Below, in pieces: positions 1,830-62,651 of a stretch of 64,000 bases of DNA (position 1 is the stretch's first letter; each line of letters opens with the position of its first letter). Both the position numbers and the translations under genes were made by a program. Location of the stretch: positions 1 to 64,000 of IMG/VR virus record IMGVR_UViG_3300035698_013362. One strand, given 5' to 3'. This DNA comes from a virus. The notes below the pieces were generated by a model. That model was given only the letters and a program-made list of their open reading frames with translations. It was not told the DNA's origin and did not search any database.

Positions 1830-2743
1830 TGAATATCTTATTCCATGTAGGTAGTGGGAATACAGATCGGCCTTCACGTTGGTGGGGTGTATGCGTACAC
1901 TTCTCTAACTTGGCCAGATCATTCGAATCTTTAGGACATGAATGTGTTCTACAAGTTCATCCAAAAGCTGTTTCAGCTAATATATTCCACAGATTTGAAT
2001 TATCTGAGGTTGCTAAAGATTCTCAATGTAATCCTGATGTAGTCTTTACATGGAATGGTATCTCTCCGGGTGATAAAGCTATTATTGATTTGCATCCTAA
2101 TGCTATTCCAGTCTATGCTGAATTAGGTTTCTTTGATCATTATGAAACGGTCTACTTTGATTTCTCTGGAACCAATAGTCGTTCAATGAATCTTCTCGAG
2201 GACATTGATAAAGAATTTAATGGCCTTGATGAAGAAATATTCAATAGAGTTAAACGTAAATACGCTAAGTATCAACTTATTAATGATTATGAATATGTCT
2301 TTGTTCCTCTTCAGGATAATCTCGATACTCAGATCACTAAATATAGTCCGTTTAACAATATGACTGAATTTATGGATTGGGTTCTTGATGTAACAAAGTT
2401 CATGGGACCTGAAGTAAAGATTGTTTATAAGCAACACCCAATGGCTCCTACTCCAATTAAAGCAGACCCTAGATTAATAGAAGTCAAAGATGATGTACAC
2501 CATTATCTTGAGAATGCAAACTTTGTTATTGGTTGCAACTCAAGTGTGCTCTTCGAGTGTCTATTATATCATAATCGCATTATTACAGCCGGCATAGGAT
2601 TAACTTCTAGGCCTCTGAATGAAGAAGATAGAAAAGCTTATATTATCCATTGTTATAAAAAGCAAATACATCAAACAAAGTTAGGCGATCCTAACTACAT
2701 TAAAGAAACTTGGATGTATAAGGAACTTCTTAAGAAGGTTTAG
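1829..2743 (+). CDS. capsule-synthesis-type glycosyltransferase-like protein
   Basis: 304 aa, GTG start overlapping the previous TAG by 1 nt. The C-terminal half follows the pattern of KpsS/LipB-type capsular polysaccharide proteins (Capsule_synth family): VFVPLQDNLDTQI near residue 155, KQHP near 205, then NFVIGCNSSVLFECLLY near 235-250, the usual sugar-nucleotide-binding region of this GT-B-like fold. A role in making a sugar polymer or transferring a sugar is likely; acceptor and donor are unknown. It lies downstream of an acyltransferase. Its 3' end overlaps a convergent homing endonuclease gene by 14 nt. Confidence 0.6.
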   Translation: MNILFHVGSGNTDRPSRWWGVCVHFSNLARSFESLGHECVLQVHPKAVSANIFHRFELSEVAKDSQCNPDVVFTWNGISPGDKAIIDLHPNAIPVYAELGFFDHYETVYFDFSGTNSRSMNLLEDIDKEFNGLDEEIFNRVKRKYAKYQLINDYEYVFVPLQDNLDTQITKYSPFNNMTEFMDWVLDVTKFMGPEVKIVYKQHPMAPTPIKADPRLIEVKDDVHHYLENANFVIGCNSSVLFECLLYHNRIITAGIGLTSRPLNEEDRKAYIIHCYKKQIHQTKLGDPNYIKETWMYKELLKKV

Positions 2744-3398
2744 ATTTACAATTATTTAAATGATAACGAGTCATATTACACTGTCTTCCAATTTTAAAAC
2801 AATGAGGACAAACCACTTTATAAGATAAGTTATTCTTTCTTTTAATTAAGCTTCGGTTAATTGGATTTCCTAAAAATAATGCAAGTGGTTTATGTTTACA
2901 ATTATCAAAGTGGTATTTTTTAAGATTTGATATATCTATTTCTAATAGACAATGTGGACATTTCTTTATTTCACGTTTATTAGTATGATTAAATTTTCTA
3001 CCTTTAGATACCGCGATTAAATCCCCTGATGTATATCTAGGATCGGTATTTGATACTTGGAATAAATTATTATCTTTATCCCTAACATAAACCATACCTA
3101 ATAAATATCCATCACCACCTATGGCTAAATTATATGTATCAGATCTTTCTATATATTCTTCATTTACAATGTGCATTTCATCGATATATGCTTCATTTTC
3201 AGAATGATGAAATCTTAATATTTCTATAGCAAAATTTTCTATACCATATTTCTTAACGGCTTTATTTATAGCCACACCACTTCCATAATAACCATCATTA
3301 AGATCATTAGTTGAGTGTTTATCTGTATATTCTTTCTTATTAATTAAATTATATGTTCTATAAATTATATGAAATTTACCATCTATTCCTTTAAACAT
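2730..3398 (-). CDS. GIY-YIG homing endonuclease with one DPRY repeat and two zinc fingers
   Basis: 222 aa, free-standing homing endonuclease. Residues about 9-95 are the GIY-YIG domain (FHIIYRTYNLINKKEYTDKHS), followed by one ~31-residue RDKDNN...VSNTDPRYTSGDL repeat. The C-terminus holds two CPHC-x(n)-H-x4-C fingers (about 145-168 and 196-219), likely for DNA binding. The glycine of the YIG motif is Asp here, which may impair activity. The gene is more AT-rich than its neighbours and convergent with the preceding gene. The start has AAAGG upstream and a late-type GATAAATA at 3425. It is intact, unlike most of its paralogues in the window. Confidence 0.85.
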   Translation of the reverse strand: MFKGIDGKFHIIYRTYNLINKKEYTDKHSTNDLNDGYYGSGVAINKAVKKYGIENFAIEILRFHHSENEAYIDEMHIVNEEYIERSDTYNLAIGGDGYLLGMVYVRDKDNNLFQVSNTDPRYTSGDLIAVSKGRKFNHTNKREIKKCPHCLLEIDISNLKKYHFDNCKHKPLALFLGNPINRSLIKRKNNLSYKVVCPHCFKIGRQCNMTRYHLNNCKSKPS

Positions 3399-5687: not shown

Positions 5688-5966
5688 ATGACAAAGAAGG
5701 ATAAATCTAATATCAATACATTCGGAATCCTTATAGAGGCGCTGTGTATAGCAGCAGCCCCTGATTTCGGTGTTGATATCTTCAGGAACGGTGAAAACTA
5801 CGTTAAGGCTTTAGAGGCACTTATTAAAGATAACACTGAAGCTTTTGAACTATGTGACCTCAAAAATTTGTATGTTTTTATTGATGAAATCGATGAAGAA
5901 AACCCAGTCGTATCTAATATTATTCAACTGCTTAATGGTAAGCTTGAAATTCGAACGATTGAATAG
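5688..5966 (+). CDS. hypothetical protein, 92 aa
   Basis: Small acidic protein with a good ribosome-binding site (GGAGGT). No recognised domain. The hydrophobic segment GILIEALCIAAAP near the N-terminus is too short and mixed for a clear membrane helix. Its last 35 nt overlap the 3' end of a convergent homing endonuclease frame. Confidence 0.6.
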   Translation: MTKKDKSNINTFGILIEALCIAAAPDFGVDIFRNGENYVKALEALIKDNTEAFELCDLKNLYVFIDEIDEENPVVSNIIQLLNGKLEIRTIE

Positions 5967-6534
5967 ATTTACAATTATTAAAGTGCCAACGTCCCATAGC
6001 AGTAGCGCCTCCACTTTTATTACAATGTGGACACTTTACTGTTTTAGACCCTAATTTAATACCTTTAATATGATGAACTAATTCACCACTTAAATATCTT
6101 GGATCATTCTTACTAACTGAAAACTTATTACCGTCTTTATCTTTAACATTAACTCTATCTTTAGCTATTCCAACTAATTCACGAGATTTAAATCTAGGAT
6201 CGTCTACTGATACTGATAAATTATGTCCATTTTCATCAATAACTGAAGTCATTCCAGAGAAATTACCATGTCCACCTAATAATATATTATAAGTATCTTC
6301 TCTTTCTATATAATCTTCATTTATTATTCTTTTTTCTTCTAAGTATGCAGCTTCTTCAGTATTATGAAAGCTTAATATTTCTACAGCAAAATTTTTAAGG
6401 CCATATTTGGTTACAGCTAAACTTATTATTGTGCCCGATCCATAATAATTATCTTCTAAATTATTTGTACTATGTTTACCTGTATATTCTTTGCCATTTA
6501 TTAAGTTATATGTTCGATATATTATATGATAATA
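5932..6534 (-). pseudogene. GIY-YIG homing endonuclease lacking a start codon
   Basis: The frame is open for 200 codons and contains the whole family layout: YHIIYRTYNLINGKEYTGKH (GIY-YIG), FAVEILSFHNTEEAA, two ~31-residue repeats ending DPRFKSREL and DPRYLSGEL, and a C-terminal CPHC...HFNNC finger. Where paralogues have ATG-(Lys)-Tyr-His, this copy has TGA directly before TAT-TAT-CAT (6535-6537). No ATG, GTG or TTG precedes the catalytic domain, and the first ATG (6252) lies after it. The gene seems to have lost its start. Its 3' end overlaps the preceding gene by 35 nt. Confidence 0.7.
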
Positions 6535-8767: not shown

Positions 8768-8802
8768 CGCCATAAATTAATTTCTTAATTTATGGCGTTT
8801 TT
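8768..8802 (+). terminator. rho-independent terminator
   Basis: Perfect 13-bp stem (8768-8780 with 8785-8797), 4-nt loop TTTC, then five T. It ends the preceding plus-strand operon. The convergent endonuclease frame stops inside its 3' arm. Confidence 0.85.
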
Positions 8803-9487
8803 ACAATTATCGAAATGCCATCTTCTCATTATTGTAATTCCTCCATTCTTTCCACAATGTGGGCAAACAATTGTTTTATGTATACGACCCTTGTTTACAC
8901 AAATTAGCTCTCCTGATAATATGCGGGGATCATTTTTAGAAACACGCATATTGTTTCCATCTTTATCTCTAACTACGGCGTTTCCTGTAGCAAAATGAAC
9001 AAGCTCACCAGATATATAACGAGGATCAGATTTATCTACTAAAAAATGATTACCAGATTTATCTTTAACAGTGACCATTCCATGTGCAATACCTACAAGC
9101 TCGCCTGATATATAACGAGGATCATTACTAGAAACAAATATATTTTTACCAGATTGATTCTTTGCCATTACCATTCCATTACCACCACATCCACCAGTCT
9201 TTTGATTATATGTATCTTCACGTTCTACATAATCCCAATCAACAATTAAAAATTCTTCTGCGTATGCCAAGTCTGATGTGTTATGAAAGCTTAGTATCTC
9301 AACGGCAAAATTTTCTAACCCATATTTATTGATTGCTTTAGTGAGGATATTGCCAGATCCATAATATCCATCATTTAATTTAAACGTTGAATGTTTACCT
9401 ATATTCCTTGCCGTTAATTAGATTATGAGTTCTATAAACATAGTGATATTTTCCATCTTCGCCTAATATTGTATTTAATATTTTCAT
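8785..9487 (-). pseudogene. GIY-YIG homing endonuclease frameshifted inside the YIG motif
   Basis: From ATG 9487 the frame reads MKILNTILGEDGKYHYVYRTHNL... and breaks at 9400-9403, exactly in the Y-I-G motif. EY is followed by one stray nucleotide and then GKHST in another frame, as if the dinucleotide TA was lost from TATATA. The remainder (GYYGSG, FAVEILSFHN, three ~31-residue DPRYISGEL-type repeats, one CPHC...HFDNC finger) is open to 8785. The late-type octamer TATAAATA lies 5 nt before the ATG. Without recoding, the catalytic domain is lost. Confidence 0.75.
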
Positions 9488-15952: not shown

Positions 15953-17305
15953 ATGAAAAACGAAAACCACATCTCTAATTTCTTTGGTAACGATTATATC
16001 TCATTTGCCTCTTATGATGGCGTAAGGAAAATTGCTTCAGTCGCTGATGGCAACAAACCTACTGCCCGTAAAGCGATATACACAGTTATTGATCTTAAAA
16101 TTAATGCTCCTAAGAAAGTTGACTCGATCAAGTCTAAGGTAGCCGATCATACTGAATATATCCATGGCCAAGATGCGATTGAAGGTGTAATTGTTAACCT
16201 TGCTCAAAACTTCGTCGGTGCTCAAAACGTTCCATTGATGATTAGAGATGGGTCTTTCGGAACTCGGCTTATCCCAGATGCTGCTGCTTCACGTTATATC
16301 AGAAGTGCAGCAGAACCTTATCTGAAGTATTTGTTCAGAGAAGAAGATAACCCAGTTATCGGAAATCAGGAGTTTGAAGGATCAAAAATTGAACCAAAGT
16401 TCTTTGTTCCTATCATGCCTATGCTCCTAGTGAACGGATCTGAAGGGATTGCAGTTGGTTATGCACAAAAGATTCTCCCTCGTGATCCTGAAAAGCTTAT
16501 GCAGTACTTATTTACTGGAATGAAGGATGAAGATCTTTTACTTCCACACTATAATGGATTTAAAGGTAAGATAATTAAGACTGATGTAAAGTCTTTTGAA
16601 ATACGTGGGGTCATTGCTAATAAGAATACGACTACCTACGAAATCCTTGAGGTGCCCGTTGGTTATACCTACACCTCTTATAAGAAGGTATTAGATAAGC
16701 TTGAAGAAGCTGGAACGATTGTTTCATATGACGATAGATGTGATATGGATAAGGATGTGTTCAGCATATCTATTAAGGTTAAACGTGAACAACATAACAG
16801 ATTAAAGGCTATGACTAACCTTGAGTTGTTAGAGACGTTTAAGCTTGTTAAGCGTGTAACTGAAAACTACACTTGCCTTAATGAAAACAACCAGATTGAA
16901 GTATTCGATACAGCTGCTGATATCATCAGACGATATGCAGAGATTCGTGTTAGATATTATACGATGCGTAAAGAATACACTGAAGCACAAATGTTGAAGA
17001 AGATGACGGAACTTAAATCAAAAATTCTGTTCATTGATAAAGTACGTAAAGCGGAAATCGATGTAAAGAGTGAAACTAAAGTCAACCTTATCTTAATCCT
17101 CGATGCAATTGATGGTGTAGTTCTCAAGAATGAGTCCTATGATTACTTATTGAACATGCCACTTTGGTCAATCAATGAAGAATCGTTTGCTAAAGCAATT
17201 AATGAAGTAAAGAAGATGGCCCAAGATTATAAGAATTACCAGAGCATTAAAATTGCCACAATGTGGAAAAACGAGTATCGAGATTTACTTAAAAAATTAC
17301 ATTAA
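15953..17305 (+). CDS. 52: DNA topoisomerase II medium subunit (gp52)
   Basis: 450 aa, matching T4 gp52 in size. This is the GyrA/ParC-like breakage-reunion subunit: winged-helix region with GSFGTRLIPDAAASRYI, where the Tyr near residue 114 is the expected DNA-linking residue, then the tower and coiled-coil parts (LLETFKLV..., EAQMLKKMTELKSKI) and the helix ending before the stop. It acts with the gp39-like subunit encoded 3 kb upstream. No clear ribosome-binding site precedes the ATG. The 3' end overlaps a convergent endonuclease frame by 17 nt. Confidence 0.92.
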   Translation: MKNENHISNFFGNDYISFASYDGVRKIASVADGNKPTARKAIYTVIDLKINAPKKVDSIKSKVADHTEYIHGQDAIEGVIVNLAQNFVGAQNVPLMIRDGSFGTRLIPDAAASRYIRSAAEPYLKYLFREEDNPVIGNQEFEGSKIEPKFFVPIMPMLLVNGSEGIAVGYAQKILPRDPEKLMQYLFTGMKDEDLLLPHYNGFKGKIIKTDVKSFEIRGVIANKNTTTYEILEVPVGYTYTSYKKVLDKLEEAGTIVSYDDRCDMDKDVFSISIKVKREQHNRLKAMTNLELLETFKLVKRVTENYTCLNENNQIEVFDTAADIIRRYAEIRVRYYTMRKEYTEAQMLKKMTELKSKILFIDKVRKAEIDVKSETKVNLILILDAIDGVVLKNESYDYLLNMPLWSINEESFAKAINEVKKMAQDYKNYQSIKIATMWKNEYRDLLKKLH

Positions 17306-18024
17306 GCTTACAATTATCAAAATGCCAACGTTTCATTGCTCCTATATTTCCTTCTTTTTTACAATGAGGACATTTAATATTATTTGATGGGTTCTTTTGT
17401 TTTTTAATATTCTTTTGTTTTTTGTTTTTCTTTATTCTTCCAGAACATATGAATTTAAGTTCTCCATTTAAGTATTTATAATCATATTTAGAAACCCTTG
17501 ATGTATTCCCTTCTTTATCTTTAACAGTAACCATACCTTTAGAGGTAGAAACTAATTCACCTGAAATATATCTAGGATCATTTTTATCTACTTGAAATGT
17601 ATTACCATCTTTATCTTTAACTGGGACCTTATCTTTAAAAAAAGAAACTAATTCACCACTTAGGTATTTAGGATCATCTACAGAAACTGACATAGTATTT
17701 CCATCTTTATCTTTAACTGTTAATTTATTACGCCTATTACAATGGTGCCAAGTTCCAAAACCACCTAAAGTTAAATTATAAGTATCACTACGTTCGACAT
17801 ATTCATAATTAACTATCCTAGATTCCTCCATTAAAGCCTCTTCTTCAGTATTATGAAAACTCAAAATTTCTACTGCAAAATTTTCTAATCCATATTTTTT
17901 TTACCGCTAAATTTAAAACTTTACCAGATCCATAATACCCATCTTCAATATTAGTTGTACTATGCTTGCCTATATACTCTTTATAATTAATTAAATTATG
18001 AGTTCTATAAACTATATGATACAT
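17289..18024 (-). pseudogene. GIY-YIG homing endonuclease with a frameshift at an A8 run
   Basis: ATG 18024 starts MYHIVYRTHNLINYKEYIGKH (complete GIY-YIG), and the frame breaks after LAVKK at an A8 run (17895-17902, T on the plus strand). Removing one A restores YGLENFAVEILSFHNTEEEALMEE and the rest to 17289. The repaired protein has three ~31-residue repeats (DPKYLSGEL, DPRYISGEL, YDYKYLNGEL) and one CPHC...HFDNC finger. AAAGGAC is the ribosome-binding site. It sits between gene 52 and a glycosyltransferase gene. Confidence 0.75.
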
Positions 18025-19308: not shown

Positions 19309-20376
19309 ATGACTGATCAAGCTCGCCAGATTGAAACACAACTCGTTTATTGGAACGACGAATACCGCAAAGGTACTCCAGTCGTAAGTGATCCTGTTTT
19401 CGATTCACTCCTCGAACAATTTGAATCATTCGTTACTGTTGAAGAATACACCCGTGTTCGTGAATCCCTTTTTAATACTAAAGGTGACGTGAAACACCAA
19501 TACATCATTGGTTCGTTGAAGAAAACGAAAGCTGAAGATGATTCAATCCTCAAATGGATTGGTAAAGATAACGTAACTGAAGCATACATCGTTGAAAAGC
19601 TTGATGGAATGTCTATCGTGTTACATTACGTAGACAGCGTTCTCGTTAAAGCCGTGTCACGTGGTGATGGTGAATATGGTAAGGACTATACAGAAAACCT
19701 CAAGCATATCGCTCCACTTCGCCTTGACCTCAAATTCACAGGTCAGGTTCGTGCTGAAGTTGTGCTTCCAATTAGTGAACTTAAAAACATTAATGATATA
19801 GGCTTCACCTATAAGAACCCACGTAATGCTACGACTGGTCTCATTACTTCCAAATCAACCGAGGCGGATCTCCTTAAGCGCTGTAAAGTTATTGCTTACC
19901 AGATAATGGGATCAACTGAAAAGAAACCTACACAATACAGTGCGTTATATGATCTCGGTTTTACTCTTCCTAAACGTGAAACCTTCGATACACGCATTGA
20001 TAATGTTACACCTAATTCACTTAAAGCTATTTACGAAATCTGGACAGCTCAATCTGATTACGAAATCGATGGACTTGTTATCCACAACCTGAATTATGGT
20101 GATGAAAACATTAAACTCCCGACCCACACAATCGCTTTTAAAGTAAATGATCTCGTTGCAACAACAACCGTTCTCGACATCGAATGGGAAATGAGTCGTG
20201 GTAAAGAATATCGCCCAGTGGTTGTATTTAAAGCAATCGAGCTTGGTGGAGCTACAATCCAACGTGCTACTGGAAACAATCTACAATGGCTTATTGATCA
20301 TAAACTTGAAATTGGATGTAGTGTTATTATAGAAAAAGCGGGTGATATTATTCCTCGGATTGTACAAGTTGTTTAG
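19309..20376 (+). CDS. NAD+-dependent DNA ligase, N-terminal part (LigA subunit A)
   Basis: 355 aa covering the adenylation domain and the OB fold. VEKLDGMS near residue 94 is the KxDG nucleophile motif, followed by VSRGDGEYGKDYT, RAEVVLP (motif III) and DYEIDGLVI (motif IV); it ends after the OB-fold segment VIIEKAGDIIPRIVQV. Bacterial LigA continues into a zinc finger, HhH and BRCT, which here are a separate gene 108 bp downstream. The N-terminal Ia domain is short but begins with the expected Tyr/His region. It seals nicks during replication and uses NAD+, unlike the ATP ligase of T4. Confidence 0.9.
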   Translation: MTDQARQIETQLVYWNDEYRKGTPVVSDPVFDSLLEQFESFVTVEEYTRVRESLFNTKGDVKHQYIIGSLKKTKAEDDSILKWIGKDNVTEAYIVEKLDGMSIVLHYVDSVLVKAVSRGDGEYGKDYTENLKHIAPLRLDLKFTGQVRAEVVLPISELKNINDIGFTYKNPRNATTGLITSKSTEADLLKRCKVIAYQIMGSTEKKPTQYSALYDLGFTLPKRETFDTRIDNVTPNSLKAIYEIWTAQSDYEIDGLVIHNLNYGDENIKLPTHTIAFKVNDLVATTTVLDIEWEMSRGKEYRPVVVFKAIELGGATIQRATGNNLQWLIDHKLEIGCSVIIEKAGDIIPRIVQVV

Positions 20377-20484: not shown

Positions 20485-21306
20485 ATGTTTACTAAACTAA
20501 ATTTAAATATCCCAATGTTTTGTTTTCATTGTAATCAACCAACTACAATGAAAGGTCCACACCTCGTATGTGCTAATGATGCTTGTACTGGAAACCAAAT
20601 CAAGCAAATGAATACATTCCTTCGTGCTTGTGGAATTCAAGGTTTCTCTGAATCAACTTTGGAAAAATGGAAGCTTACTTCGATCGAAAAGGTAATGGCC
20701 TTCTACCCTAACACTCCTAATGAAAAGAAATTTCTTAATGAGCTATATGGTAATGTCTTCAACAAATCGAAACGTGATTTGATTATTGCTCTGCCATTCC
20801 ATAACTTCGGTTCAACCCTTGTGACCCGTATGCTTGATACATATGGTAAGCAACGTATGGCTCATAACGATATCCTCGTAGATGGAATCAGTGCTGAACG
20901 TCAACGCAACTTCAAATCTCAGTTCGCTGAACTTGTGAAATGGGTTGAAGTTATTACTCATGACAATCGTTGGAAGCCCCAGGTCGCCGTTAGACAAAAC
21001 ACTTCACCTCTCAGCAATAAACTATCAGGCCTCAGCTTTTGCTTTACAGGAAAGCTTACTACAATGACTCGTTCTGATGCTGAGAAATATGTTAAGTCTA
21101 ATGGTGGTGAAGTCAAATCGGTTTCAGCTAAGCTTACTTATCTTGTTACTAACAATCCTAACAGTGGTACCTCCAAGAACAAAAAAGCTCAGAACCTTGG
21201 TGTACAACTCATTACTGAAAAACAGTTTGGTGAATTACTCGGTAAGAAGATTGAAGATAAAAAGACTGAAGATAAATCAACACTTTTCGACATCAACGAT
21301 CTATAA
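20485..21306 (+). CDS. NAD+-dependent DNA ligase, C-terminal part (LigA subunit B)
   Basis: 273 aa carrying the domains absent from the preceding gene: a Cys4-type zinc finger (CFHCNQ...CANDACTGN, about residues 12-37), a helix-hairpin-helix region, and a BRCT domain (LSGLSFCFTGKLTTMTRSDA, about 172-245). It should bind DNA and dock to the adenylation subunit. Two-gene NAD+ ligases annotated as subunits A and B are known in some large myoviruses. The stop, gap, promoter and ribosome-binding site all argue for two true genes, not a frameshift. Confidence 0.85.
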   Translation: MFTKLNLNIPMFCFHCNQPTTMKGPHLVCANDACTGNQIKQMNTFLRACGIQGFSESTLEKWKLTSIEKVMAFYPNTPNEKKFLNELYGNVFNKSKRDLIIALPFHNFGSTLVTRMLDTYGKQRMAHNDILVDGISAERQRNFKSQFAELVKWVEVITHDNRWKPQVAVRQNTSPLSNKLSGLSFCFTGKLTTMTRSDAEKYVKSNGGEVKSVSAKLTYLVTNNPNSGTSKNKKAQNLGVQLITEKQFGELLGKKIEDKKTEDKSTLFDINDL

Positions 21307-62276: not shown

Positions 62277-62651
62277 ATGAAAAAACATATACTATATAAA
62301 ACTACAAATCAAATTAATAATAAAATATATATTGGTATTCATTCAACTGAAAATCTTGATGATGGATATTTAGGTTCAGGTAAAGTTCTCTAATTTGCAT
62401 TAACAAAATATGGTAAAGAAAACTTCACTAGAGAAATATTAGAGGAATTTAATACACGAGAAGAAGCATCTAATGCAGAAGAAAAAATAGTTAATGGTAC
62501 CTTTATAAGACATAGAGACAATTATAACACTAATACAGGTGGTGGACATAATTGGTATGGAATGGTTTCTGTTATTTACGAAAAACCTATAACAAAAAAG
62601 AACATAATAGGGTATTATGACCCTGAAGATGAAGAAATAGAGTTCCTTTAA
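62277..62651 (+). pseudogene. short GIY-YIG homing endonuclease with in-frame TAA
   Basis: ATG 62277 starts MKKHILYKTTNQINNKIYIG, then HSTENLDDGYLGSGKVL, and meets TAA at 62391-62393. The frame then stays open (FALTKYGKENFTREILEEFN, NAEEKIVNGTFIRH, TGGGHNWYGM) to 62649. Repaired length is 124 residues, with only the catalytic domain and a short tail: no DPRY repeat or zinc finger. It belongs to a different subfamily from the four minus-strand copies, lies between neck and tube genes, and is co-directional with them. Confidence 0.7.

What the first reader, a model, noticed from the sequence alone, without database searches (positions are those of the whole stretch)
17289..18024. Modular homing endonucleases with variable numbers of a ~31-residue DPRYxSGEL repeat
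Seen: four minus-strand GIY-YIG proteins share catalytic domain and terminal CPHC...H...C finger, but the middle has 1 (2730), 2 (5932), 3 (8785) or 3 (17289) copies of VxDKDGNxxxVSxxDPRYLSGELV. Zinc fingers number 2, 1, 1, 1. Inference: repeats form a DNA-reading array whose length changes with the target, like a modular recognition domain. I do not know a described function for this repeat.
Basis: partly seen in the sequence, partly recalled or inferred. Interest (0 to 1): 0.58.

Follow-up and report, generated by a model that had tools for sequence, protein, structure and literature searches.

The report
Phage homing nucleases with recognition-repeat arrays
Selfish DNA-cutting genes of phages carry 1 to 14 copies of an uncatalogued 32-residue protein repeat, and three fast-changing residues in each copy track the place where the gene sits, so the repeats probably work like changeable address letters that pick the cutting site.

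Summary
The window holds nine copies of a strictly 32-residue repeat (consensus KVTVKDKDGNTFQVSKDDPRYLSGELVGITKG) in four minus-strand GIY-YIG genes (1, 2, 3, 3 copies). Only the 2730 gene is intact: 17289 and 8785 are frameshifted inside the nuclease domain, and 5932 has no ATG/GTG/TTG start ahead of its nuclease domain. In other phage contigs the repeat forms arrays of up to 14 units, spaced exactly 32 residues in 242 of 273 adjacent pairs. No Pfam family describes it. AlphaFold2 gives a compact beta-hairpin, short-helix, short-strand unit. Within arrays, positions 3, 28 and 30 evolve under diversifying selection (pN/pS 2.06 among recent duplicates; scaffold 0.07). At orthologous genomic sites those positions are more conserved than other variable positions (70/147 against 274/637; backgrounds 0.142 and 0.270). 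In related nucleases at other sites they are near background (717/4407). Repeat number also follows site. Best reading: modular DNA-recognition repeats, comparable in logic to TALE or PRDM9 arrays. DNA contact and any code are inferred, not shown. The repeat also occurs in an endonuclease annotated as HNH beside a group I intron hit.

The parts
17289..18024 (-). GIY-YIG homing endonuclease gene, frameshifted (ATG 18024; A8 run 17902-17895; C-terminal frame 17900-17289)
17631..17726 (-). repeat unit 1 (KLTVKDKDGNTMSVSVDDPKYLSGELVSFFKD)
   Evidence: AF2 pLDDT of the three-repeat region mostly 94-98
17535..17630 (-). repeat unit 2 (KVPVKDKDGNTFQVDKNDPRYISGELVSTSKG)
17439..17534 (-). repeat unit 3 (MVTVKDKEGNTSRVSKYDYKYLNGELKFICSG)
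17310..17372 (-). CPHC...H...C zinc-finger-like module
   Evidence: sequence
8785..9487 (-). GIY-YIG homing endonuclease gene, frameshifted near 9404-9399
9079..9174 (-). repeat unit 1
8983..9078 (-). repeat unit 2
8887..8982 (-). repeat unit 3
8803..8865 (-). CPHC...H...C finger
5932..6534 (-). GIY-YIG homing endonuclease frame without ATG/GTG/TTG before the nuclease domain
6157..6252 (-). repeat unit 1
6061..6156 (-). repeat unit 2
5971..6033 (-). CPHC...H...C finger
2730..3398 (-). intact GIY-YIG homing endonuclease gene, 222 aa
3000..3095 (-). single repeat unit
2898..2960 (-). CPHC...H...C finger 1
2748..2810 (-). CPHC...H...C finger 2
62280..62650 (+). decayed GIY-YIG homing endonuclease remnant (approximate limits; in-frame stops)

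Best explanation
The 32-residue unit is a zinc-free DNA-recognition module of phage homing endonucleases. The nuclease domain (GIY-YIG in most members) cuts. A tandem array of units, followed by other modules (CPHC finger, NUMOD3, or a C-terminal WI..NG...GW..GR segment), finds the target. Each unit keeps a fixed scaffold and offers three changeable residues: positions 28 and 30 at its end and position 3 in the first strand of the next unit, which lie near each other along the chain. Units are gained, lost and rediversified when the gene moves to a new site and kept while it stays. SHOWN: the arrays, the fixed period, selection on positions 3/28/30, conservation of these positions and of unit number at shared sites. 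INFERRED: that the ligand is the target DNA, that the three residues touch bases, and how many base pairs each unit covers. In this window the family has invaded repeatedly and most copies are decaying.
For: Arrays of 1-14 units in 102 non-redundant frames, period exactly 32 in 242 of 273 adjacent pairs. pN/pS at positions 3+28+30 between repeats of one array: 2.06 (95% bootstrap 1.74-2.44; 34 pairs, 16 arrays, 80% nt identity or more) and 1.42 (141 pairs, 25 arrays, 72% or more); scaffold 0.07 and 0.12. Same-site genes (flanking gene 50-90% identical): 70/147 identical at these positions against background 0.142, other variable positions 274/637 against 0.270; excess conserved fraction 0.389 against 0.219, difference 0.170 (0.104-0.243). 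Related nucleases elsewhere: 717/4407 and 5615/19097, difference about zero. Mean difference in unit number 0.75 at shared sites, 2.75 at random. Genes lie inside dnaK, beside gp32-, topoisomerase- and RNase H-like genes and in tRNA clusters, usual homing targets. The repeat also occurs in an endonuclease that RefSeq calls HNH, next to a sub-threshold group I intron hit in a split polymerase gene. The strongest structure matches are phage homing endonucleases and an unnamed viral protein. AF2 gives confident units.
Against: No DNA-binding experiment or co-structure; no PDB relative. Orientation between units is not determined (pTM 0.42 and 0.52). Some same-site pairs do not keep the three residues: L132/L230 2/12, L158/L230 2/9, the dnaK group 5/18. 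The 16 same-site pairs fall into seven site groups and are not independent. The three residues are mostly small or weakly polar, not basic. Positions were chosen after seeing the within-array data, so only the same-site test is independent.
Confidence: 0.72

Rival explanations
1. Spacer or tether: the array only sets the distance and flexibility between nuclease and the C-terminal DNA-binding modules, as the I-TevI linker does; sequence is read elsewhere.
For: Arrays lie between nuclease and C-terminal modules; I-TevI selects its cleavage site by sequence and distance through a linker (PMC2988022, passages read); low pTM fits a flexible chain. Unit number is kept at shared sites, which a spacer also predicts.
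Against: A spacer gives no reason for pN/pS above 1 at three fixed positions nor for their conservation only at shared sites. Arrays of 10-12 units end the protein in L091, L100 and L007 with almost nothing behind them.
Confidence: 0.12
2. Protein- or RNA-binding array: the units bind a host or phage protein, or an RNA such as tRNA, and the variable face follows that partner.
For: 15 of 67 loci have a tRNA or tmRNA within 1 kb of the array gene; SH3/Tudor-like Pfam hits in multi-repeat arrays are recalled as common in protein- and RNA-binding domains.
Against: 52 of 67 loci have no tRNA or tmRNA within 1 kb; the variable residues follow the genomic site rather than the nuclease lineage; tRNA clusters are known homing sites as such (segB in T4, PMC2988022).
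Confidence: 0.08
3. Repeats as recombination substrate: 96-bp units expand and contract by unequal crossing over, and the variable residues are merely unconstrained.
For: Exact 96-bp period; near-identical neighbouring units in several arrays.
Against: Lack of constraint gives pN/pS near 1, not 1.4 to 2.1, and does not predict conservation at shared sites.
Confidence: 0.06

Closest known systems
GIY-YIG free-standing and intron homing endonucleases (I-TevI, T4 Seg proteins, F-LimII)
   Same: N-terminal GIY-YIG nuclease, modular beads-on-a-string DNA-binding part, zinc finger, placement beside conserved replication genes or tRNAs
   Different: The 32-residue repeat in tandem arrays of up to 14 does not appear in the passages I read on these enzymes (PMC2988022, PMC1564403)
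T5orf172 HEGs with repeated CapR/DUF723 zinc-finger domains (PMC10448857, section 23 read)
   Same: Phage homing nucleases with repeated DNA-binding domains that recombine; that paper proposes retargeting by module change
   Different: There the repeats are zinc fingers with CxxC...CxC; here the unit has no Cys/His ligands, a fixed 32-residue period, longer arrays and three positively selected positions
PRDM9 zinc-finger array (PMC2779102, passages read)
   Same: Homogeneous repeats, changing number, positive selection at three positions per repeat; there these are the base-contacting residues
   Different: C2H2 zinc fingers of an animal methyltransferase; unrelated sequence
TALE and TALE-like repeats (recalled; PMC5472282 seen through a term search only)
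   Same: Fixed-length tandem repeats with a conserved scaffold and few hypervariable positions
   Different: TALE units are alpha-helical, 33-35 aa, with the variable pair at 12/13 (recalled); these are beta-rich, 32 aa, with variable 3/28/30
phrog_12434 'HNH endonuclease'
   Same: Its profile contains one copy of this repeat (positions about 162-207), which is why 87 of 89 array frames match it
   Different: One copy, in an endonuclease annotated as HNH; the profile does not describe arrays

Membership tests
GIY-YIG homing endonuclease | GIY-YIG nuclease domain | tested here: met
   window 2730: phrog_314 2.2e-28, Pfam SegE_GIY-YIG 1.5e-4 but below the curated cut-off; 69 of 89 array frames match phrog_314, 48 SegE_GIY-YIG, 36 GIY-YIG at the thresholds used
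GIY-YIG homing endonuclease | intact frame joining nuclease and DNA-binding part | tested here: not met
   17289 and 8785 frameshifted, 5932 without standard start; only 2730 intact, so the membership claim for the three others is 'broken members'
GIY-YIG homing endonuclease | mobility: gene present or absent at one site | tested here: inconclusive
   three relatives split dnaK, a fourth contig has dnaK whole; no relative of the window's own topoisomerase neighbour found
TALE repeat family | alpha-helical 33-35 aa repeats with variable residues 12/13 (recalled) | tested here: not met
   unit is 32 aa, strand-strand-short helix-short strand; variable positions 3/28/30; no TALE family among the Pfam rows listed
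C2H2 zinc-finger array | Cys2His2 ligands in each repeat | tested here: not met
   no conserved Cys or His in 183 gapless units
NUMOD3 module | Pfam NUMOD3 match in the repeat itself | tested here: not met
   no NUMOD3 row for the repeat-only array, A3 member 1; NUMOD3 matches 18 of 89 whole proteins
SH3-like (Myosin_N) fold | Pfam match above cut-off and matching fold | tested here: inconclusive
   window proteins below cut-off; 59.7 bits summed over several copies in a multi-repeat array; no convincing fold match
DNA-recognition repeat | binding to target DNA | not testable with these tools
   needs experiment

The most novel reading that the evidence does not exclude
A new, zinc-free class of programmable DNA-recognition repeat: each 32-residue unit reads a fixed small number of base pairs through residues 28, 30 and the next unit's 3, with a decipherable residue-to-base code, and phage homing nucleases retarget by adding, removing and rediversifying units.
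Probability: 0.35. Interest if true: 0.92.

Novelty: new variant of a known kind. Interest (0 to 1): 0.72.

Why it matters
Modular repeats that read DNA base by base are few (TALE, zinc fingers; PPR/PUF proteins read RNA; all recalled). A further beta-rich, zinc-free family with naturally diversified arrays of up to 14 units, already joined to a small nuclease, would give a testable model for how homing genes jump to new targets and possibly a compact targeting scaffold. The question of how selfish nucleases change specificity becomes testable because the candidate residues are named.

Tried and rejected
Group I intron context as a way to read the target directly: none at Rfam gathering scores in the window or in the 67 array loci; an E-value search of four loci gave one sub-threshold hit, at the HNH-annotated gene L170 (30.4 bits, cut-off 50), none at the dnaK genes L013, L015, L022.

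Known folds: Foldseek on PDB gave no convincing match (best E 8.7e-4 at TM 0.13); the VIA second look gave one row at Z 2.0. PDB sequence searches gave nothing credible. This does not show that the fold is new.

Empty site for the window's own gene: a scan with the neighbouring topoisomerase subunit found no relative.

Same-site test before automation: hand pairing of three pairs gave 25/39, automatic pairing of the same three 24/42. L116/L099 was first noticed by its matching residues and only then by its neighbour; without it the same-site figure is 55/123. A hand-picked set of 15 different-site pairs gave 33/192, replaced by 394 pairs picked by rule.

Near-identical array copies were too few to compare rates among orthologues: differences fell at positions 19, 28 and 29 (plus one X) in L100/L145, and at four places around one unit junction in L113/L107.

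Repeat number against tRNA context: 15 of 67 loci within 1 kb, none with 7 or more units (Fisher 0.016), but the rank test gives p 0.054; kept as a hint, confounded by lineage.

Blind decipherment of a residue-to-base code from flanks was considered and not run: arrays are too few and targets in carriers may be altered.

Papers: PMC10448857 section 23 read in full and passages seen; passages of PMC2988022, PMC1564403, PMC2779102, PMC4546147 seen; PMC5472282 searched by term only, no hit for homing, endonuclease, phage or virus; others seen in listings only. PMC4546147 (Campylobacter phage CP21) concerns DNA repeat regions, not this protein repeat. The not-in-print statement rests on searches; a search for the repeat's letters found no paper.

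Full report
WHAT IS THERE. The window is phage DNA (record of 82,918 bases). Four minus-strand genes carry a GIY-YIG domain, one to three copies of a 32-residue repeat and one or two CPHC fingers. All nine repeats are in exact register (96 nt), and profile E-values for the four frames run from 6.9e-18 to 5.3e-59. Only the 2730 gene is whole. The 17289 gene changes frame at an A8 run, the 8785 gene near 9404-9399, and the 5932 gene has no standard start before its nuclease domain. A further remnant with in-frame stops lies on the plus strand around 62280-62650, and another repeat-bearing gene lies outside the window at 75127-75924 of the record (L084).

THE FAMILY. Scans of viral contigs with the protein and with two-repeat alignments, with the loci, gave 102 non-redundant repeat-bearing frames (of 204) holding 446 units, 1 to 14 per frame (the earlier set had 79 frames). 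Longest: L001 with 14. Adjacent units are exactly 32 apart in 242 of 273 cases (earlier set). Of 354 units, the 183 without gaps or inserts were used for position statistics, 171 were dropped. Conserved: V4, K5, D6, G9, V14, D18, P19, R20, Y21, S23, G24, E25, L26, G32. Most variable: 30, 3, 13, 29, 11, 28. One scan of 84,980 bacterial and archaeal species genomes found five loci, so the repeat is essentially viral; some of those contigs may be phage. Most arrays follow a GIY-YIG domain (69 of 89 frames match phrog_314). NUMOD3 is found in 18 of 89.

STRUCTURE. AlphaFold2 of six units from L008 with 28 natural rows: mean pLDDT 86.6, pTM 0.42; each unit strand 1-5, strand 11-15, short helix 19-23, short strand 27-28. 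The window's own 17292-17900 frame: repeats mostly pLDDT 94-98, pTM 0.52, same elements. Units are confident, their mutual arrangement is not. The BFVD matches with high probability include a 60% identical viral protein, a GIY-YIG nuclease and several homing endonucleases. No solved relative was found. That positions 28, 30 and the next unit's 3 form one surface patch is inferred from the strand order; coordinates were not on hand.

SELECTION. Between repeats of the same array, using simple Nei-Gojobori counts, positions 3, 28 and 30 together give pN/pS 1.42 (95% bootstrap over arrays 1.23-1.67; 141 pairs, 25 arrays, 72% nt identity or more) and 2.06 (1.74-2.44; 34 pairs, 16 arrays, 80% or more). 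Positions 11, 13, 16 and 29 give 0.85 and 0.63, the scaffold 0.12 and 0.07 (per position). The three positions were picked from the same data, so this is description; the next test is independent of it. PRDM9 zinc fingers show the same pattern at their three base-contacting positions (PMC2779102).

SITE TEST. Array genes were paired when a flanking gene on the same side and in the same orientation was homologous: 31 pairs. Two pairs with neighbours 96-100% identical were dropped. For 16 pairs with neighbours 50-90% identical, positions 3/28/30 agree in 70/147, other variable positions in 274/637; for 13 pairs below 50%, 16/126 and 149/546. Random backgrounds are 0.142 and 0.270. After removing chance matches the conserved fraction is 0.389 against 0.219 (difference 0.170, bootstrap 0.104-0.243). 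For 394 pairs with nucleases at least 50% identical (mean 56%) but not sharing a site it is 0.024 against 0.033 (at most 400 pairs were drawn from the 473 found, less those sharing a site). The residues that change fastest between repeats are the better kept ones when the site is the same, and carry almost no memory of shared ancestry when it is not. Unit number differs by 0.75 on average at shared sites and by 2.75 at random. Against: L132/L230 2/12, L158/L230 2/9 and the dnaK group 5/18 do not show it; the 16 pairs fall into seven site groups.

WHERE THEY SIT. Inside dnaK (L013, L015, L022; dnaK whole in L156), beside gp32-like, topoisomerase-like and RNase H-like genes, and in tRNA clusters (15 of 67 loci within 1 kb). 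In T4, segG lies between genes 32 and 59 and cleaves gene 32, and segB lies among tRNA genes (PMC2988022). In Shigella phage JK32 one unit lies in an endonuclease between two halves of the DNA polymerase gene with a sub-threshold group I intron hit; close relatives are annotated HNH endonuclease in RefSeq and a more distant one as I-LimII. Pfam did not confirm an HNH domain, so the HNH label rests on annotation.

READING. Best reading: the units are target-recognition modules, 0.72. A pure spacer, another ligand, or neutral repeats explain less. The window itself shows the decay stage of the homing life cycle. Closest print: repeated zinc-finger domains in T5orf172 homing endonucleases (PMC10448857). 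I found no paper on this repeat in nine text searches of the open library.

Noticed in passing
window 62280-62650, + strand (approximate): Remnant of another GIY-YIG homing gene with in-frame stop codons between two structural genes.
   Followed up: partly
record G000:C1:75127-75924 (L084 1222-2226), outside the window: Fifth repeat-bearing homing gene: two repeats and several Cys/His finger-like segments, overlapping the end of a clamp-loader-like gene on the other strand.
   Followed up: partly
window 19309-20376 and 20485-21306: NAD-dependent DNA ligase appears as two frames (first ends at IPRIVQVV, second begins before the zinc-finger and BRCT parts); a split or broken gene.
   Followed up: no
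L004, L005, L006: The same array broken by the same in-frame stop codons in contigs from three different metagenomes, so decay of these genes is real there and not an assembly slip.
   Followed up: partly
L013, L015, L022 against L156 4444-6300: Homing genes sit inside a phage dnaK gene; L013 and L015 at the same codon region (FLGG/EDFD), L022 a little earlier; no Rfam intron found.
   Followed up: partly
L165 3129-3613: A GOLLD RNA with a tRNA inside it lies directly upstream of an array gene.
   Followed up: no
L070 3330-3737, L126 3232-3647: Array genes lie directly downstream of a phage tmRNA gene.
   Followed up: no
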